The position numbers and the translations under genes are program-made. The notes under the pieces are model-generated. The model was not told where the DNA came from. It did not search any database and was given only the letters and a program-made list of their open reading frames with translations. A stretch of 64,000 nt of DNA from positions 1 through 64,000 of the forward strand of contig NZ_AFGF01000007.1 of NCBI RefSeq assembly GCF_000219125.1. Direction: 5' to 3'. Positions 39,255 through 58,584 of the stretch are shown here, piece after piece; the stretch's first letter is position 1; each line of letters starts with the position of its first letter. This stretch comes from Acetonema longum DSM 6540 (GTDB taxonomy: Bacteria; Bacillota; Negativicutes; Sporomusales; Acetonemataceae).

Positions 39255-39727
39255 AAAAATTCCACTTCTCCTTTTAATAGTATGTGTTTCAACGGTCTCC
39301 TAACGATTTACTTCTAATTGGGCTAACTTTGATCCATTTCTCCCATGCTGCCATCTTCAGGTGCCTGCATCATTTCCATAACTAAAGCCGTTGAAAGAAG
39401 GGGCATGTCCTATATACAGCCGCCTGATAATGAATACCGGCGAGGTCTGTGGTCGTATTCAGTATACAGCAGATCGTACCGCGTTTAAAGATATCTTTTT
39501 ATAGTATTCCTCACTTTGTAGAACAATCCTGTCTAAATCCGACCAATCTTGAGGAACTCTTTGGCCAGTCACCGGTGCCGGCAATCCTTGTCAATATTCC
39601 TAACAATGGCTCCGCTTCCGGATGAGCACATCCGGGCCCGCCTGAATACAATAGATCAGGAGACTGACCGATCCACGCACCTGTACAAAAGGCGTGGAAA
39701 TTTTTTCTTGAAGGTTGTGACCATTGT
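39255..39727. other. Intergenic region of about 470 bases upstream of the glycan cluster
   Basis: No credible gene. A 60-codon plus frame and an 87-codon minus frame are present but lack ribosome-binding sites and recognisable products. A stretch at 39388-39410 (CCGTTGAAAGAAGGGGCAT) faintly resembles the dispersed repeat arm. The promoter of the plus-strand glycan operon must lie here or just upstream, but no convincing box pair was identified. Confidence 0.5.
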
Positions 39728-40642
39728 ATGAGAAAGGTGCTGATCTTAGGAGGCTCAGGGATGCTGGGACACACTTTGTTCCGTTTCCTTTCGGAAGAGG
39801 CCGCCGACCTTGACGTCTATACATCAGTCCGCTCGGAACATGAACTGTCGCGTTGGCTTCCCCCGGACAGAATGAAAAAAGTATACGGCAATGTTGATGT
39901 ACAGCAACCAGAGAGTCTGGTAAATGTTTTTGCGGCAGTGAAGCCAGACATCCTGGTCAATTGCATTGGCATCATTAAGCAAGTGCCGGAGGCCAAAGAT
40001 CCGCTCACAGCGATTGCCATGAACGCTTTGCTGCCGCATCGTGTTGCCTTGCTGTGCGCTGCAGCCGGCGCACGCATGATCCATATCAGTACGGATTGCG
40101 TCTTTAACGGAGAAAAAGGAGGGTATATCGAACAGGATATTGCCAATGCAGATGATCTCTATGGAAGAACCAAATATCTCGGCGAAGTCGCTTATTCTCA
40201 CTGCATCACCCTGCGCACTTCGATCATTGGGCATGAATTAAAAGGAAAACGTGGATTATTGGAATGGTTCCTGGCTCAAAAGGAAACGGTACGCGGTTTT
40301 AGAAAGGCTATTTATTCCGGCTTTCCCACCATTGAACTTTCGCGCATTATCAGGGATTATATCATTCCCCGGCCGGAGCTGACGGGGCTTTACCACCTGT
40401 CTGCCGATCCAATCTCGAAATATGATTTGCTGCAGCTCATCAATGCTCAGTATGAAACCAGCCTGATCATTGAACCGGAAGACAATACCCGGCTTGACCG
40501 GTCACTGGACTCTGCGGCATTTCGTGCCCTCACAGGCTATAAACCGCCCGCTTGGCCGGAACTGATCCATGCCATGCACAAGAATCATGCGCAAACAAGC
40601 AAAACGATGCAGTTAAGGGGGAATGAGCATGGCGCTGTTTGA
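39728..40642 (+). CDS. RmlD-like NAD(P)-dependent nucleotide-sugar 4-reductase
   Basis: 304-residue short-chain dehydrogenase. Rossmann loop LILGGSGMLGHTLFR at the N-terminus; HISTDCVFNGEKGGY and YGRTKYLGE give the Ser/Thr-Tyr-Lys active site. It is the length of dTDP-4-dehydrorhamnose reductase and lacks the C-terminal cupin of CapF/FnlB. With the adjacent CapE-type dehydratase and WecB-type epimerase it matches the WbvR role, reducing the 4-keto sugar to an L-RhaNAc intermediate before 2-epimerisation to UDP-L-QuiNAc. That assignment is inference; a CapF-like product (L-FucNAc type) is the alternative. First gene of the plus-strand operon. Confidence 0.82.
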   Translation: MRKVLILGGSGMLGHTLFRFLSEEAADLDVYTSVRSEHELSRWLPPDRMKKVYGNVDVQQPESLVNVFAAVKPDILVNCIGIIKQVPEAKDPLTAIAMNALLPHRVALLCAAAGARMIHISTDCVFNGEKGGYIEQDIANADDLYGRTKYLGEVAYSHCITLRTSIIGHELKGKRGLLEWFLAQKETVRGFRKAIYSGFPTIELSRIIRDYIIPRPELTGLYHLSADPISKYDLLQLINAQYETSLIIEPEDNTRLDRSLDSAAFRALTGYKPPAWPELIHAMHKNHAQTSKTMQLRGNEHGAV

Positions 40643-41699
40643 TAATAAAGTGATTGCAATTACCGGCGGTACCGGTTCACTGGGCAAAGTGCTGACCCGC
40701 CGGCTCCTGCAAAAGGAACTCGGCTCTCCCCGGAAGATCATCATCTTCTCGCGGGATGAAGCGAAGCAGCACGCCATGCGGGTAGAATACCAGCACAAAA
40801 GAACGGCTACCGATGAGGTAATCTATGATAATTTTGCCCGGCTCATTGAGTTCAGAATCGGGGACATCCGCAATTATCATTCTGTTTGTTCGGTTTTAAG
40901 GGATGCGGACATCGTCATCAATGCCGCCGCCCTTAAACAGGTGCCTTCCTGCGAGTACTTTCCTTATGAGGCGGTATTGACCAATGTGCTTGGCGCAGAA
41001 AATATCGTCCGGGCAATATGCGAACATAAGCTTCTCATAGAAACAGTGGTGGGAGTCTCTACGGATAAAGCCTGCAAACCGGTGAATGCCATGGGTATTT
41101 CCAAGGCCCTTCAGGAGCGGCTGTTTATTGCCGCTAATGTGACCATTCCCCAGACCAGGTTTATTTGTGTACGCTATGGCAATGTGCTGGCTTCCCGGGG
41201 TTCTGTCATCCCCCTGTTCCATGAACAAATCAGGCATGGCGGCCCGGTCACAATTACCACCCAGGAAATGACCCGGTTCCTGCTGCCCTTGGAAAGTGCG
41301 GTTGATACCATTTTTGCCGCCCTTCAAGAGGCTGCGCCAGGTGAGATATATATACCGAAAATTCCCGCAGCCCGTATTGTCGATGTGGCCAAAGCCATAA
41401 TCGGGGACAGAAATATATCTCTGACCTATACCGGCATTCGTCCGGGAGAAAAAGTCCATGAAATTCTTGTTTCCGAAGAAGAGTCCTGGCGGACCTATGA
41501 TCGCGGCAATTATTATGCCATCAAATCAATGCTTCCCGAGCTGGCGAAAACGGCGCCCGGGCTGCAGGCCTTGTCCAAAGAATACAGTTCCGGTGATTTT
41601 GTCATGACTTTCGCCGAAACAGCGGCGCTGTTGACAAAACACCATTTGCTGCAGGAAACAGATCAAGATACTAACAGAGACGGGGAATTTTTACGATGA
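40629..41699 (+). CDS. UDP-GlcNAc 4,6-dehydratase/epimerase (CapE/WbjB/FnlA type)
   Basis: 356-residue extended SDR enzyme of nucleotide-sugar synthesis. Seen: AITGGTGSLGKVLTRRLL (NAD loop), IFSRDEAKQHAM, NAAALKQVPSCEYFPYEA, GVSTDKACKPVNAMGISKA with Met in place of the usual catalytic Tyr, as in CapE, and FICVRYGNVLASRGSVIPLF. Catalyses 4,6-dehydration with C5 (and C3) epimerisation of UDP-GlcNAc. Start at the ATG at 40629, seven bases after AAGGGGG, overlapping the reductase gene end; its own stop overlaps the next gene (ATGA). Confidence 0.92.
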   Translation: MALFDNKVIAITGGTGSLGKVLTRRLLQKELGSPRKIIIFSRDEAKQHAMRVEYQHKRTATDEVIYDNFARLIEFRIGDIRNYHSVCSVLRDADIVINAAALKQVPSCEYFPYEAVLTNVLGAENIVRAICEHKLLIETVVGVSTDKACKPVNAMGISKALQERLFIAANVTIPQTRFICVRYGNVLASRGSVIPLFHEQIRHGGPVTITTQEMTRFLLPLESAVDTIFAALQEAAPGEIYIPKIPAARIVDVAKAIIGDRNISLTYTGIRPGEKVHEILVSEEESWRTYDRGNYYAIKSMLPELAKTAPGLQALSKEYSSGDFVMTFAETAALLTKHHLLQETDQDTNRDGEFLR

Positions 41700-44600
41700 A
41701 AAAATATAAGATTGTGTGCATGTGCCAGATCTATAATGAACTGCGCAAAGGAAACCTGGAACGATTCGTAACCTACGTAAAACCTCTGGTCGAGGATTTA
41801 GTCGTCTATGACGACGGCAGCACCGACGGCAGCTACGAATATATGCTGCAGCAAACGCCCTATGTCCTGCGCGGGACAGAAAATGATTTCGCCAACGAAC
41901 AGCGCCATAAACAACTCCTGCTGCAGGAAGCCTTGAAACTGAATCCGGATTACATCTTATGGCTGGATGCGGACGAAGTTTTAACCGCTAATGCCGCAGA
42001 TTGCCTGCAAAAATGGTGCACCGCATGTGAAGTGCAACAGCTGGACGGCGTATGCTTCCACGAGCTGAATCTGTGGCGCAGCCATTCCTGGCGGCGGTTG
42101 GACAGTTTATTTGACCAGGGCTGGTTTTGCCGCCTATGGCGGGTAGTCCCCGGCATTCACTTCTATGAGCCGAAACCAGGGTTGCATCAAAAGCCGCATC
42201 CGGTAACAATTCAGCGCATGGCCTGGGCCGAAGACATTCAGGTGCTGCACTATGGCTTCGCTTCCGAGCGAAACCTGGCATATAAATATCTGGTTTATCG
42301 CTCCCACGGACAACGCGGTTATAACATGCTTGACCGTTTGATCAGTGAAGAAAGCCTAACGGTGACAAAGGTCCCCCGTGAGCTGTTTCCGGAAGGTCTG
42401 TGGCTGGACGATGAAGCTCCGCAGCCTATGAAATTCGTTGAGTCCCTGGCTTATGTGGAACAGTACCGGGAAGAAGTGTTTAAGCCCAAATTCTCCATCA
42501 TATGTTTAGTCTATAAAAGCGTTGGCTGGCTGGATTTCGTTCGTGAGCAGGTCTTGCGCTATACCGACATGACTGAAAAGGAGTTTTTCTTTGTCGCCAA
42601 TGATGCTAACACTGCTGTGCTGAGCCATTTGCAGGAACATTATATACCGCACTATATTCATGAGAACACTCCCAAACAGCAAGGGGAATGGTATGTCAAT
42701 AATGTATACCGGGCCTATAATTTTGCAGTCAGCAAGGCCCGGGGAGATTTTATTGTGTTCATTAATTCCGACATGGCTTTTACGCCGGGTTGGTTTGATC
42801 ATTTATGGCAGGCCTATAACGGAGCAAACTGCGTCGCCTCCCGCTTGGTGGAATCGGGAAAATTGCCCAGCGGTCAATACGGAGTGGAAAAAAACTTTGG
42901 CCGGGATTACGCCTCCTATCAAGAAAGCCAGTTTCTGCAGTATGCCTGTCAATTAGCGGAAGCTAAAACAGCGGACGGCGGCCTGTTTATGCCCCTTCTG
43001 ATCCGCAAGGAACATTTTGAGCGGGCCGGAGGCTACCCGGAAGGGCAGGTGGCCTTTGGCAGCGATCTTTACCGGCCGGTGATCGCCCGGCGGGGAGAAC
43101 CTTGCATTTCCGGCGACACAGCCTTGATCTTGAAGCTCCAGGCCATGGGGATCAAGCATCAAACGGCTTTCGGCAGTATTGTTTATCACTTCCAGTGGGG
43201 CGAAATAGATAGCCCGGAATCCCCGGAAACTCCGGTGCGTCCGGTAAAAGTCGCCCTAGCCATGGCAGCAGCAGTCGCCCCAGGTTTAGAAGACGCCCTG
43301 CTTGCCGCCTTGCCCGCCTCAGTCAGCCTTGGCGCCTCCGCAGCCGACAATCCGGGCGATTATGCCGCCCGGGCCCGCAGTGATCTAGAGGAACAGTATC
43401 CCGATACAGAGGTCATTATTCAGGATGCCACCCGCCTGCCGCTCATTGATCCCACTCGTTACACCATCGCTTTGCTGCAGGAGGATCTCCGCGCCAGCGG
43501 TACGGCAAGCGAGCAGCAGGAAGCGAATTTACGGCAGGCCAATAGGCTTGCAACCCACTCTATCGATATTGCCCACTCTTATGCCGAATATGATTTCACC
43601 ATAATTCCCGCTGCGCCGGATTCGGGCGAAAAATGGCGCCAGCTGCTGACTGCAGTTTTTCAGGAGTGCATGATAGCTAAACAGGAGCAGCAAGCAAAAA
43701 CAGCCCGGCATAAAGTATCGATCATTTTAACTACATTCCAAAGGGTACACTTGTTAAGATGGGGTTTATGGTCCTTAGCCCGCCAGGATATCCCTTTTGA
43801 TTTTGAAACCATTGTGGTGAATGACGGCTTACAGGATGAAACTGAAGCCGTTTGCAATGAGTTCAAGGAAAAGCTCAATCTGAAGTATGTATTTACCGGG
43901 CAAAGAAATCTAAACGGTCAAGTGGTGTGGCGGGTACCCGGTTTTGCCATGAATATCGGCGTACAACAATCCTGCGGCGATATTTTGGTCATCGGCTGCG
44001 CCGAAATGTTTCATGTCAATGACACCATCGCCAGGCTTGTGCCGCCCATTTTAGAAAATCCCAAACTGCTGGGCATTCCCACCGGCAAGGATGACCGCGA
44101 TGGAAGGTTTCTGGCATATATCAATAACCATGACGGAGCCTCTGATCCGGATAGCTATGACCAATGCGCCGCCTTAACTGTCACGCTGCCCTTTCTGATG
44201 GCCCTTCACCGCAGCCAGTATGTTGCGATTGGGGGATATGATGAGGATTTTGTCGGCATGGCCTATGATGACAATGACTTTATCCAGCGCTTATTAAGCA
44301 ATGGCTGCCAGTATTGTCAGACCGACGCTTCCACAATACACTTGTACCACCCCCGGTCAGACAGCTATTATGTGAGCGGTGGCCCCCCTGAATGGGAATA
44401 TAACAAACACCTCTATTTTTCCCGCATTGGTCAAATCGTCCGGAATGAAGGCCGTGAATGGGGCGTTATCAAATATACGCAAGTCAAGGAGGTCGAAAAA
44501 TTCGTGAAATTAAACTGGCATGAAGACTTTATTGTTCATCTGGCCGGTCTCATCCGCCCGCGGGTCTATGTGGAGCTTGGGCTATACCGGTGTTACCTCT

Positions 44601-45064
44601 TTAACCGCATCATCCCCCTAGCGGAAGAGTTAATTGGCGTGGATATCAGCGTCGAAGCCGGGCAGGCCATGCTATCTTCAACGAAAACCCGCTTTTTTAA
44701 GGGGACGACGCAGGACTTTGCCAGAGAATTGGCGGTAAGGCCGCTGCAAATCGATATGCTGTTCATTGATGCCGATCATTCGCAGACAGCCGTGTTACAG
44801 GACTTTACGAGCTTTTTCCCGTTTGTGGCGCCCCACGGTCTCATTTTGCTGCATGATACCCACCCGAAAGATGAGGCTATGATGGACCCCCAATGGTGCG
44901 GCACGGCCTGTCAGGCGGCGGAAATATTGGCGCAGGACACCCGCGCCTATGAATTAATGACGATTCCCGTTCCCCCGGGCCTGACGATTTGCCGCAAGCG
45001 GCGAGCGCAGTTATCCTGGCAGGAAGGCAGCATTGATCAAGCAACTCAGCAGCCAGGGAAATAG
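41696..45064 (+). CDS. Very large multidomain protein: three GT2-like glycosyltransferase modules plus a C-terminal methyltransferase-like module
   Basis: 1122 residues, cytosolic, no membrane segment. Module 1 (about 1-260) is a GT2-type domain with VVYDDGSTDGSYEYM and WLDADEVLT. Module 2 (about 265-505) has FSIICLVYKSVGWLDFV, a DxD-like FINSDMAF and a GGYPEGQVAFGSDLY acceptor-side region. Residues about 510-660 are a low-similarity linker, rich in Ala and acidic residues. Module 3 (about 671-920) is another GT2 domain with SIILTTFQRVHLLRWGLWSL and GGYDEDFVGMAYDDNDFIQR. Module 4 (about 950-1110) has a SAM-methyltransferase-like fold with VYVELGLYRCYLFNRI, IGVDIS, MLFIDADHSQTAVLQDF and LILLHDTHP. 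Coupled to the dehydratase gene. Likely assembles a short glycan on one acceptor (inferred). Confidence 0.82.
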   Translation: MKKYKIVCMCQIYNELRKGNLERFVTYVKPLVEDLVVYDDGSTDGSYEYMLQQTPYVLRGTENDFANEQRHKQLLLQEALKLNPDYILWLDADEVLTANAADCLQKWCTACEVQQLDGVCFHELNLWRSHSWRRLDSLFDQGWFCRLWRVVPGIHFYEPKPGLHQKPHPVTIQRMAWAEDIQVLHYGFASERNLAYKYLVYRSHGQRGYNMLDRLISEESLTVTKVPRELFPEGLWLDDEAPQPMKFVESLAYVEQYREEVFKPKFSIICLVYKSVGWLDFVREQVLRYTDMTEKEFFFVANDANTAVLSHLQEHYIPHYIHENTPKQQGEWYVNNVYRAYNFAVSKARGDFIVFINSDMAFTPGWFDHLWQAYNGANCVASRLVESGKLPSGQYGVEKNFGRDYASYQESQFLQYACQLAEAKTADGGLFMPLLIRKEHFERAGGYPEGQVAFGSDLYRPVIARRGEPCISGDTALILKLQAMGIKHQTAFGSIVYHFQWGEIDSPESPETPVRPVKVALAMAAAVAPGLEDALLAALPASVSLGASAADNPGDYAARARSDLEEQYPDTEVIIQDATRLPLIDPTRYTIALLQEDLRASGTASEQQEANLRQANRLATHSIDIAHSYAEYDFTIIPAAPDSGEKWRQLLTAVFQECMIAKQEQQAKTARHKVSIILTTFQRVHLLRWGLWSLARQDIPFDFETIVVNDGLQDETEAVCNEFKEKLNLKYVFTGQRNLNGQVVWRVPGFAMNIGVQQSCGDILVIGCAEMFHVNDTIARLVPPILENPKLLGIPTGKDDRDGRFLAYINNHDGASDPDSYDQCAALTVTLPFLMALHRSQYVAIGGYDEDFVGMAYDDNDFIQRLLSNGCQYCQTDASTIHLYHPRSDSYYVSGGPPEWEYNKHLYFSRIGQIVRNEGREWGVIKYTQVKEVEKFVKLNWHEDFIVHLAGLIRPRVYVELGLYRCYLFNRIIPLAEELIGVDISVEAGQAMLSSTKTRFFKGTTQDFARELAVRPLQIDMLFIDADHSQTAVLQDFTSFFPFVAPHGLILLHDTHPKDEAMMDPQWCGTACQAAEILAQDTRAYELMTIPVPPGLTICRKRRAQLSWQEGSIDQATQQPGK

Positions 45065-45112: not shown

Positions 45113-45754
45113 TTAATCCACCAGATCGGTTTTCATGATCATGTCTTTCAACCTGAAATTATAAGGCAACAAAACTGATTTGTCGAAGGTAGTAAAGTTT
45201 ATGTTTTGCAGCGGACCGATGTCGTATGGATAATCTTCTTCGGCCATTTGCCTGGTTGTCACGTTTCCTTCCTCTCGCCATTTTTTAAAAAAATGATTTT
45301 TAGTAAAATTAGTTTTTGCATACTGCCAGGATGTGGGTAAATAAATATAGTCAATTTCCTCGCTTTCATAATAACTGATATTTGCCTCTTTCAGCCGCCT
45401 GGTAAAATCATTGTCCTCATAACCGCCGCCGATAAACCGTTCATCAAAAAAACCAATCTTTCTGATCAAGTCCTTTTTGAATCCAAAAAAGCCAAATCGA
45501 TAAAGGCCCACCAAACCCCAGCCGTCTTGCAGCATAGTCAGAATTTTTTGCACCGCCGCAGGCGTTGGCCGGGCTTTATCATTACAGATGATAATTTTCT
45601 CATACCAACTTGACACTATCGCCTCATTAACCAGCTTTGAAAACGATGGATAATTTGTGCCATCAAGAATTCTGCTGTTCAAACCCGCTAAACATGATTG
45701 CGCTTCCCGGCTAAGGTGAGGTCTGTTGGATATGATAATTATTTCATAGTCCAC
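45113..45754 (-). CDS. GT2-like glycosyltransferase (small)
   Basis: 213 residues from the GTG at 45754, which has GGAGG 11 bases upstream (the frame is open six codons further). It retains the GT2 Rossmann half in degenerate form (IIICNDKARPTPAAVQKIL) and the acceptor-side motif GFFDERFIGGGYEDNDFTRRL, the same ED/DND pattern as module 3 of the neighbouring giant protein. No N-terminal DDGSxD motif, so the nucleotide site is unusual and activity is uncertain. Transcribed toward the glycan operon from the opposite strand. Confidence 0.68.
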   Translation of the reverse strand: MDYEIIIISNRPHLSREAQSCLAGLNSRILDGTNYPSFSKLVNEAIVSSWYEKIIICNDKARPTPAAVQKILTMLQDGWGLVGLYRFGFFGFKKDLIRKIGFFDERFIGGGYEDNDFTRRLKEANISYYESEEIDYIYLPTSWQYAKTNFTKNHFFKKWREEGNVTTRQMAEEDYPYDIGPLQNINFTTFDKSVLLPYNFRLKDMIMKTDLVD

Positions 45755-45865
45755 GTTTTTAATTGCCTCCACAGTTTAAATTTAGTCTTGATTATAATGT
45801 ATGTATTACCGTCCCAATGGTGTGAAAAAATGCTACTCCAGGTGACTCTACCTGCATAATCTTTT

Positions 45866-45943: not shown

Positions 45944-47020
45944 ATGAAGATTATGACCATTTTGGGCACACGGCCGGAAATCATTCGTCTTAGCCGGATT
46001 ATTCCTTACCTAGATGACCTTTGTAAGCATATTCTCGTGCATACCGGCCAAAATTTTGACCGGACCTTAAGTGATATATTTTTTACCGAACTAAAGCTGC
46101 GGTCGCCTGATTATCATTTGGACTGCCGCGCCCAGACCGCCATGAGTCAAATAAGCGAAATACTCCGTCGCTGCGAACAGGTGCTGAGCGAGGAAAAGCC
46201 TGACCGCCTGCTGATACTGGGAGACACCAACAGCGCCTTAGCGGCGCTGCCCGCCAAACGGCTGCGCATTCCGGTTTACCACATGGAGGCAGGCAACCGC
46301 TGCTATGATGACCGGGTGCCGGAAGAAGTCAACCGTCGTATTGTCGATCATTGCAGCGATATTCTCTTGCCTTACACCGAGCGAAGCCGGGCTAATTTGC
46401 TGCGGGAAGGCATTGCCGGCAGCCGGATCTATGTTACGGGCAATCCCATTGGCGAGGTTCTCAGCCATTATGCAGATCAAATTAGCCGGAGTCAGGCGCT
46501 GCAGACGCTAGGAGTAGCCAATCAAGGCTATTTTCTCGTAACCCTGCACCGGGCGGAAAATGTCGACGACGGGGACCGTCTGGAGAAATTCATCGCAGCC
46601 TTGCATAGACTCTATGCAGAATATGAACTGCCGCTGATTTGCAGTCTCCATCCCCGCACCCGCTCCCAACTGATTAAACAAAATAAGACCTTAGCCGGTA
46701 CCGGTATCCGGATCGTAGAGCCATTAGGCCTGTTTGATTTCGTGTGGCTGGAGCAAAATGCCTTCTGTGTTTTGAGTGACAGCGGCACAGTGCAGGAGGA
46801 GTGCTGCCTTTTCAAAACGCCGAATGTAACGCTGCGCGATGTGACCGAACGGCCGGAAACCCTGGAGACCGGCAGCAATCTGATTGCCGGCTGTGATCCT
46901 ACAGCCATCTTGCGGGCGGTGCAAACGGTTTTGCATCAAGGCCGAAACTGGGAACCGCCGCCTGAATACCGGGTCGCCAATGTAAGCCGGAAGGTTCTTA
47001 AAATCCTCCTGGGTGTGTAA
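45944..47020 (+). CDS. Non-hydrolysing UDP-GlcNAc 2-epimerase family enzyme (WecB/CapG/FnlC-like)
   Basis: 358-residue GT-B fold epimerase. Signature regions: TILGTRPEIIRLSRIIPYL, LVHTGQNFDRTLSDIFF, LILGDTNSALAAL, YHMEAGNRCYDDRVPEEVNRR, VTGNPIGEVL, LVTLHRAENV, CSLHPRTRSQL and LSDSGTVQEECCLF. The EAGNRCYD segment and genome context fit the CapG/WbvD branch, which inverts C2 of UDP-linked 6-deoxy amino sugars, more than WecB itself, but the two are hard to separate by eye. Third enzyme of the predicted L-amino-sugar pathway. Confidence 0.88.
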   Translation: MKIMTILGTRPEIIRLSRIIPYLDDLCKHILVHTGQNFDRTLSDIFFTELKLRSPDYHLDCRAQTAMSQISEILRRCEQVLSEEKPDRLLILGDTNSALAALPAKRLRIPVYHMEAGNRCYDDRVPEEVNRRIVDHCSDILLPYTERSRANLLREGIAGSRIYVTGNPIGEVLSHYADQISRSQALQTLGVANQGYFLVTLHRAENVDDGDRLEKFIAALHRLYAEYELPLICSLHPRTRSQLIKQNKTLAGTGIRIVEPLGLFDFVWLEQNAFCVLSDSGTVQEECCLFKTPNVTLRDVTERPETLETGSNLIAGCDPTAILRAVQTVLHQGRNWEPPPEYRVANVSRKVLKILLGV

Positions 47021-58345: not shown

Positions 58346-58365
58346 AACCAAACCCTTTTGCAGCA

Positions 58366-58452
58366 GTCCCTACGCTGGCATTATCCAGATCAGGTTAATG
58401 GGTCATAGACTTGCGGGTCTATATCTCAGCCGGCCTTTTCCAGCTCCCCAGG
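58366..58452 (-). ncRNA. TPP riboswitch (THI element)
   Basis: Minus-strand RNA with the conserved THI pieces in order: GGGGAGC, GGCTGAGA, GACCC, then ACCTGATCTGGATAATGCCA and GCGTAGGGA. It is followed by the terminator at 58316-58345 and then thiM-thiW, so thiamine pyrophosphate represses the salvage operon by premature termination. Confidence 0.97.
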
Positions 58453-58584
58453 CATCTTTTTTCTATTAAATGTAACATATCACATCTGCATATTTTTTTC
58501 AATATCTTCAACCGGATAATTGGGGAAATTTATAACTCAGTCTAGCAAAGTAATAATCATCCAACAAAATGATTTAAAATAAAA

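What the first reader, a model, noticed from the sequence alone, without database searches (positions are those of the whole stretch)
41696..45064. 1122-residue protein with three GT2-like modules and a methyltransferase-like module
The protein joins two N-terminal GT2-type domains, a poorly conserved linker, a third GT2-like domain with an ED/DND acceptor motif, and a Rossmann SAM-methyltransferase-like end, all without membrane segments. Such a chain could build and cap a short oligosaccharide on one acceptor (for example flagellin, S-layer protein or lipid carrier). Translational coupling to an L-amino-sugar dehydratase gene links it to a particular sugar. The exact combination is not one I recognise.
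Basis: partly seen in the sequence, partly recalled or inferred. Interest (0 to 1): 0.68.

Follow-up and report, generated by a model that had tools for sequence, protein, structure and literature searches.

The report
Fused sugar-chain builder for spore coats
One bacterial protein strings together three sugar-adding enzymes, half of a fourth and a methyl-adding cap enzyme, and its relatives sit beside genes for the hair-like collagen proteins of spore surfaces, so it probably builds and caps the sugar chain that coats those spores.

Summary
The 1122-aa ORF is real and modular: A (GT2, 1-262), B (GT2-like, 263-512), L (513-668), C (GT2/Glyco_transf_7C, 669-932), M (Methyltransf_24, 933-1112). 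Desulfosporosinus relatives keep the whole GT4. The donor-binding half (~163 codons, always in frame) is missing at the same point in the window/Pelosinus branch and in several separate Desulfosporosinus lineages. The exact order A-B-L-C-M was found only here and in two Pelosinus genomes. Elsewhere the same modules are split, re-ordered or fused (M-A-B, M-A, A-B-L-C, SgtA-like GT fused to M), mostly beside the same nucleotide-sugar genes. Those genes point to UDP-L-RhaNAc/L-QuiNAc rather than L-FucNAc. Likely acceptor: BclA-type collagen glycoproteins of the spore surface. Such genes lie directly downstream in Desulfosporosinus. In the window's own contig, 22 kb downstream, a BclA_C collagen gene lies next to an SgtA-like TPR-glycosyltransferase. 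In Ignavibacteria the set sits beside flagellin, and in one genome beside a Wzm/Wzt exporter. No member found here has a known function; WsaE is the nearest working analogue. Verdict: new variant of a known kind.

The parts
39728..40642 (+). RmlD/QnlA-like NDP-sugar 4-keto reductase (304 aa, no cupin domain)
   Evidence: RmlD_sub_bind E=3e-27; PDB matches are dTDP-4-dehydrorhamnose reductases, no CapF at E<=1e-5; same position in nearly all Bacillota relatives
40623..41699 (+). CapE/FnlA-like UDP-GlcNAc 4,6-dehydratase/5-epimerase (358 aa); its stop overlaps the start of the finding (ATGA)
   Evidence: Polysacc_synt_2 E=4e-88; best PDB matches UDP-GlcNAc 4,6-dehydratase/5-epimerase 6e-70 and CapE 1e-68; overlap
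41696..45064 (+). five-module glycosyltransferase/methyltransferase protein A-B-L-C-M (1122 aa)
   Evidence: 81% identical homologues of the same order in two Pelosinus genomes
41696..42481 (+). module A: GT2 (GT-A) with VVYDDGSTDGS and LWLDADE (DxD)
   Evidence: PF13704 E=2e-9 and PF00535; motifs conserved in relatives; stands alone as a 276-aa gene in L029/L040
42482..43231 (+). module B: GT2-like (GT-A) with FVANDAN and FINSDM
   Evidence: AF2 model pLDDT mostly 80-93; motifs conserved; stands alone as a 246-aa gene in L029/L040
43232..43699 (+). module L: N-terminal half of a GT4/GT-B glycosyltransferase; donor-binding half missing (junction near 43605-43625)
   Evidence: hhalign of L to long-form L+X E=4e-67; L+X to GT4 prob 94, E=2e-7; long-form model matches GT-B enzymes; 489-nt in-frame gap
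43700..44491 (+). module C: GT2 with Glyco_transf_7C-type motif AYDDNDF; CAE in place of DxD
   Evidence: PF00535 at 675-793 and PF02709; best structural match K4 chondroitin polymerase, Z 22.2, rmsd 2.9 over 222 residues; stands alone as a ~257-aa gene in several relatives
44492..45064 (+). module M: class I SAM O-methyltransferase (Methyltransf_24)
   Evidence: PF13578 E=2.5e-11; invariant WHE, ELG and conserved FIDADH, HDT; profile matches O-methyltransferases such as YrrM; separate gene or differently fused in relatives
45113..45772 (-). companion mini-glycosyltransferase GTx (219 aa), convergent with the finding
   Evidence: sub-threshold PF02709/PF10111; 86% identical in Pelosinus; near M or A in L019, L029, L052
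45795..45821 (-). sigma-K-like promoter upstream of GTx (ACC-N15-CATACATTA)
   Evidence: only match in the window, 0.34 expected; similar site at the same place in Pelosinus, spacing 17
45944..47020 (+). CapG/QnlB-like UDP-sugar 2-epimerase (358 aa)
   Evidence: Epimerase_2 E=3e-96; best PDB match CapG E=1e-99

Best explanation
The protein is a soluble assembly-line enzyme for a short O-linked surface glycan. The neighbouring genes turn UDP-GlcNAc into UDP-L-RhaNAc and UDP-L-QuiNAc. Modules A, B and C each transfer one sugar, at least one of them that L-sugar. M then O-methylates a sugar of the product, capping it. L is the acceptor-side half of a former GT4 glycosyltransferase whose donor-binding half has been lost; it is kept as a spacer or scaffold and is predicted inactive, so the glycan should lack one sugar that relatives with the full GT4 add. 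In the window's organism and in Desulfosporosinus and Pelosinus the acceptor is most likely a BclA-type collagen glycoprotein of the spore surface, primed with a first sugar by an SgtA-like TPR-glycosyltransferase. Shown here: module identity, L-sugar genes, conserved companions, collagen gene linkage, loss of the GT4 half. Inferred: each catalytic activity, order of addition, the acceptor in this organism, and inactivity of L.
For: (1) Three GT-type modules plus a Methyltransf_24 module, catalytic motifs conserved, GT-A fold for C. (2) Modules occur as separate adjacent genes or in other fusions, mostly beside the same L-sugar genes: M-A-B, M-A, A|B, M|A-B-L-X|C, and an SgtA-like TPR-GT fused to M: fusion evidence that they act on one glycan. 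(3) In Desulfosporosinus, collagen-like genes (PF01391, BclA_C) lie directly downstream of A-B-L-C, followed in longer loci by TPR-GT and M. (4) On the window's own contig, a collagen/BclA_C gene (42.2 bits, cut-off 38) lies next to a TPR-GT that is 59-63% identical to the Desulfosporosinus one. (5) Pelosinus also has that TPR-GT next to collagen genes. (6) C. difficile SgtA, a 358-aa GT-A plus TPR enzyme encoded beside bclA3, adds the first O-GlcNAc to collagen-repeat threonines; extension enzymes were not found (PMC7157674). (7) Sugar genes CapE-, RmlD- and CapG-like; FnlA+QnlA+QnlB is annotated as UDP-L-QuiNAc (PMC6467956).
Against: In the window and in Pelosinus the enzyme is not adjacent to the collagen gene (about 22 kb and about 100 kb away); the link runs through Desulfosporosinus synteny and the shared TPR-GT. 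Two Syntrophomonas-type genomes with the modules lack the TPR-GT at E<=1e-30. Homologues beside flagellin and beside Wzm/Wzt show that the modules are not tied to spores. Module C lacks a canonical DxD. The model of M has low confidence because few aligned rows cover it. No expression or biochemical data.
Confidence: 0.55

Rival explanations
1. The enzyme glycosylates flagellin: it builds and caps an O-glycan on the flagellar filament.
For: In Stygiobacter (Ignavibacteriota) the set lies directly upstream of flagellin, FliS-like and FliD genes and downstream of a MotB-like gene. The window genome has flagellins.
Against: In the window genome the flagellins lie on other contigs (C233, C50), and no flagellar gene was seen near the locus in the window. 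In Desulfosporosinus the neighbours are collagen genes.
Confidence: 0.15
2. The enzyme builds a lipid-linked O-antigen or S-layer-type glycan that is exported and then attached, with M as chain terminator, as for WsaE.
For: In L021 the modules sit with a bacterial sugar transferase and a Wzm/Wzt exporter with Wzt_C domain. WsaE is a soluble GT-GT-methyltransferase for S-layer glycans (PMC2943079).
Against: Among the genes of the locus and its flanks that were examined in the window, none matched an initiating sugar transferase, flippase, exporter or oligosaccharyltransferase; none was recognised in the Pelosinus locus either.
Confidence: 0.18
3. A partly decayed fusion gene: L and possibly other modules are inactive leftovers and only one or two modules work.
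For: The GT4 donor half is gone; L diverges about twice as fast as A; C has CAE instead of DxD.
Against: A, B, C and M are 80-90% identical to Pelosinus with intact motifs. L is fast-evolving in full-GT4 forms too (ratio 1.75 versus 2.15), so relaxed constraint is not shown. CAE is conserved in stand-alone C genes.
Confidence: 0.12

Closest known systems
WsaE of Geobacillus stearothermophilus (S-layer glycan)
   Same: Large soluble chain with two glycosyltransferase domains and an O-methyltransferase that caps the glycan (PMC2943079)
   Different: WsaE has the methyltransferase at the N-terminus, uses dTDP-L-rhamnose and works with an ABC exporter and an oligosaccharyltransferase; here M is C-terminal, there are three GT2 modules plus half a GT4, amino-sugar genes and no exporter seen nearby. 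Sequence relation not tested.
C. difficile SgtA-BclA3 spore glycosylation
   Same: The window genome has a TPR-glycosyltransferase of the same layout beside a collagen/BclA_C gene; SgtA starts the glycan on collagen-repeat threonines (PMC7157674)
   Different: The finding would be the later extending and capping enzyme, the step that was not identified in that work
K4 chondroitin polymerase (KfoC) and heparosan synthases
   Same: Tandem GT-A modules in one chain; best structural match of module C (Z 22.2)
   Different: Two-module polymerases without methyltransferase or GT4 half; different sugars
FnlABC / CapEFG (UDP-L-FucNAc) and FnlA-QnlA-QnlB (UDP-L-QuiNAc)
   Same: First and last enzymes match CapE and CapG
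   Different: The middle gene is RmlD-like without the CapF cupin, which fits the QuiNAc branch
Megavirus chilensis mg534-mg539 cluster
   Same: UDP-L-RhaNAc/L-QuiNAc genes beside a protein with three GT domains; fibrils contain 4-O-methyl-L-RhaNAc (PMC9614988)
   Different: Giant virus; no homology tested; no methyltransferase fused in the three-GT protein as described

Membership tests
GT2 (GT-A) glycosyltransferase, module A | GT-A fold with nucleotide-binding Asp and DxD | tested here: met
   PF13704/PF00535 matches; DDGSTD and DAD conserved
GT2 (GT-A) glycosyltransferase, module B | GT-A fold with DxD-type motif | tested here: inconclusive
   confident GT-A-like model; motif NSD/NTD (HTD in one relative) rather than DxD
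GT2/Glyco_transf_7C, module C | GT-A fold; DxD; acceptor ED/DD motif | tested here: inconclusive
   fold met (Z 22.2 to K4CP); AYDDND met; DxD replaced by CAE in all rows with the module
GT4 (GT-B), module L | both Rossmann halves, including the C-terminal donor-binding half | tested here: not met
   only the N-half remains; C-half present in relatives, missing here
Methyltransf_24 class I SAM methyltransferase, module M | profile match over cut-off and SAM/metal motifs | tested here: met
   44.8 bits vs cut-off 26.3; ELG, FIDADH, HD conserved
WsaE-type GT/methyltransferase chain | N-terminal methyltransferase followed by two rhamnosyltransferases, encoded beside wzm/wzt | tested here: not met
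   M is C-terminal, three GT2 modules; no exporter among the neighbouring genes examined
UDP-L-FucNAc pathway (FnlABC/CapEFG) | CapF/FnlB reductase with C-terminal cupin | tested here: not met
   304-aa RmlD-like protein, no CapF among PDB matches at E<=1e-5
UDP-L-QuiNAc pathway (FnlA-QnlA-QnlB) | CapE/FnlA-like + RmlD-like + 2-epimerase | tested here: met
   product itself not testable with these tools
Spore collagen (BclA) glycosylation system | gene linkage with collagen/BclA_C genes and TPR-GT | tested here: met
   adjacent in Desulfosporosinus; collagen and TPR-GT on the same contig in the window genome, about 20 kb away
Spore collagen (BclA) glycosylation system | expression during sporulation and product on the spore | not testable with these tools
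   only a sigma-K-like site upstream of GTx, conserved in Pelosinus
Flagellin glycosylation island | linkage to flagellin genes | tested here: not met
   in the window genome flagellins are on other contigs; met in Stygiobacter

The most novel reading that the evidence does not exclude
A so far undescribed family of shuffled glycosyltransferase/methyltransferase modules extends and caps the glycan on spore-surface collagen proteins of anaerobic spore-formers, the step left open after SgtA. The chain is remodelled repeatedly by exact in-frame removal of the donor-binding half of its internal GT4, which would drop one sugar from the spore glycan each time.
Probability: 0.4. Interest if true: 0.72.

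Novelty: new variant of a known kind. Interest (0 to 1): 0.55.

Why it matters
For clostridial spore collagen glycans the initiating enzyme is known (SgtA), but the authors of that work found no extending enzyme (PMC7157674). This family gives concrete, expressible candidates for extension and capping in harmless anaerobes. The parallel loss of one GT4 half in close relatives makes a direct prediction (one sugar fewer) that mass spectrometry of spores can test. The same modules beside collagen, flagellin and an O-polysaccharide exporter would show one glycan-building kit re-used on different surfaces.

Tried and rejected
Plasmid search for relatives: only 27-31% identical single-domain matches. 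Viral contigs: only partial, 24-40% identical matches. First multi-module alignment with free M fragments placed them badly (low identities), so M was aligned apart. Relaxed selection on L as a relic: not shown, since L is also fast-evolving in the full-GT4 forms. BLAST of L alone against GT4 proteins gave nothing; the link to GT4 needs the long forms. The half-domain's own model is low-confidence and the N-half of the long model is too, so the GT-B call rests on the C-half, the junction and the homology of L to the long forms. The repeated ~114-aa domain of the Desulfosporosinus collagen proteins had no Pfam or PDB match. Rfam: only a TPP riboswitch elsewhere in the window. A sporulation-type promoter was not recognised upstream of the 39728 operon.

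Full report
Observation. The ORF 41696-45064 (+) encodes 1122 aa. It starts inside the stop of the upstream gene (ATGA), has no membrane-like segment and is conserved at 81% identity over its whole length in two Pelosinus genomes (one is P. fermentans JBW45). Pfam finds GT2-type matches in three stretches and Methyltransf_24. I divide it into A 1-262, B 263-512, L 513-668, C 669-932, M 933-1112.

Modules. A has DDGSTD and DAD, B has ND and NSD, C has NDG, CAE in place of DxD, and AYDDND; all are conserved in relatives. M has invariant WHE and ELG and conserved IDADH and HD, and its profile points to small O-methyltransferases. The AlphaFold model (mean pLDDT 62.7) is good for B and C, fair for the start of A, and poor for M, which few aligned rows cover. 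Module C matches K4 chondroitin polymerase at Z 22.2, rmsd 2.9 over 222 residues.

The linker is half an enzyme. L aligns over 137 columns with the same region of longer Desulfosporosinus homologues (E=4e-67), and the longer region L+X matches GT4 glycosyltransferases (prob 94, E=2e-7). A model of L+X is confident only in its C-half, which matches GT-B enzymes such as MshA, glycogen synthase C-domain and BshA. Compared with full forms, 483-492 nt are missing, always a multiple of three, between '..EIIP' and '..DS..KW'. On the A-module tree the short forms are nested among long ones, and in module L the closest relative of each short form outside the window/Pelosinus group is a long form. Without regain this needs about five losses (window+Pelosinus+L009, L010, L016, L033, L034); if regain by recombination is allowed, at least about four changes. 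Short GGATT/GATT-like repeats flank the missing part in several full forms (by eye). L diverges about twice as fast as A, but in full forms too, so I do not claim relaxed selection.

Shuffled modules. The five-module order was found only in the window and the two Pelosinus genomes. Others: A-B-L-C or A-B-L-X-C in Desulfosporosinus with M as a separate gene where the locus reaches that far; M|A-B-L-X|C|C, M-A-B|C and M-A|C in Syntrophomonas-type genomes; A|B as separate genes; A-B-L with a different GT2 in Sporomusa ovata; very long M-..-A-B-L chains (up to 2538 aa) in Ignavibacteria and Bacteroidetes MAGs. In G382 the TPR-glycosyltransferase is fused to M. Relatives are rare: 5 of 380 genomes of the class and 12 of 398 sampled from the phylum.

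Sugar. Beside the module genes lie a CapE/FnlA-like dehydratase-epimerase (PDB E 6e-70 to 1e-68), an RmlD-like reductase without a CapF match and a CapG-like 2-epimerase (1e-99). CapF has an SDR plus a cupin domain (PMC3699295). FnlA+QnlA (RmlD-like)+QnlB is annotated as UDP-L-QuiNAc (PMC6467956). I therefore predict UDP-L-RhaNAc/UDP-L-QuiNAc. In Ignavibacteria a separate cupin-type (FdtA/RmlC-like) gene is present.

Acceptor. In Desulfosporosinus the gene is followed by small ~114-aa proteins and collagen-like proteins, one with BclA_C over cut-off, then in longer loci TPR-GT, M and GTx. The window genome has collagen-like genes on several contigs. On the window's contig, C7:66732-67247, lies a collagen/BclA_C gene cut by the contig end, next to a TPR-GT at 65454-66557. 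This TPR-GT is 59-63% identical to those of the Desulfosporosinus loci. Pelosinus has the same pair. C. difficile SgtA has this layout, adds the first GlcNAc to BclA3 threonines, and its extending enzymes are unknown (PMC7157674). A Syntrophomonas locus has a collagen-like gene upstream of the reductase gene (L032). Against exclusivity: Stygiobacter has the set beside flagellin and FliD, L021 beside a sugar transferase and Wzm/Wzt, and two Syntrophomonas-type genomes lack the TPR-GT. So the modules are a general surface-glycan kit; spore collagen is the best-supported acceptor here, not a proven one.

Comparison. WsaE is the nearest described working analogue: two glycosyltransferases and a capping methyltransferase in one soluble chain (PMC2943079). 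Order, module number, sugar and neighbours differ. No NCBIfam equivalog reached its cut-off for the finding.

Verdict. A real, rare module combination of a known kind; the half-GT4 and the link to spore collagen are the informative parts. Catalysis, sugar order and acceptor remain inferred.

Noticed in passing
L009-L020, L033, L034 (e.g. L019 14446-17641): Tandem ~114-aa proteins of one family lie between the glycosyltransferase gene and the collagen genes in Desulfosporosinus, and the same domain forms the N-terminus of the collagen/BclA_C proteins; no Pfam or PDB match. Possibly subunits of a spore surface fibre.
   Followed up: partly
L034 versus L020, L016 versus L012 (module L): Near-exact in-frame loss of the same GT4 half in close relatives, flanked by short GGATT/GATT-like repeats: may be a recurrent switch of glycan structure.
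   Followed up: partly
window 39670-39730: A terminator-like stem with a T run (CCACGC..GCGTGG..TTTTTT) lies just upstream of the reductase gene; Pelosinus has a different stem with a T run at the same place: possible attenuation or antitermination. Seen by eye.
   Followed up: no
window 45795-45821 (-); L080 upstream of the collagen gene at 1776: Sigma-K-like sites upstream of GTx (conserved in Pelosinus) and of one collagen gene elsewhere in the same genome.
   Followed up: partly
window 58349-58460 (-): TPP riboswitch (Rfam RF00059, 65 bits).
   Followed up: no
L115 5111-8968 (G001, same family as the window genome): A TPR-glycosyltransferase in a 567-aa frame with a C-terminal extension lies near a 290-aa protein with a short collagen-like stretch, in a genome without the five-module protein.
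   Followed up: no
L026 16654-18453: Sporomusa ovata has another fusion nearby: GT2-methyltransferase-TPR (599 aa).
   Followed up: no
L079 (G000:C106:34000-48000): A collagen-like protein in the same genome sits among phage-like structural genes, so it is probably a prophage tail or fibre protein and not a spore protein.
   Followed up: no
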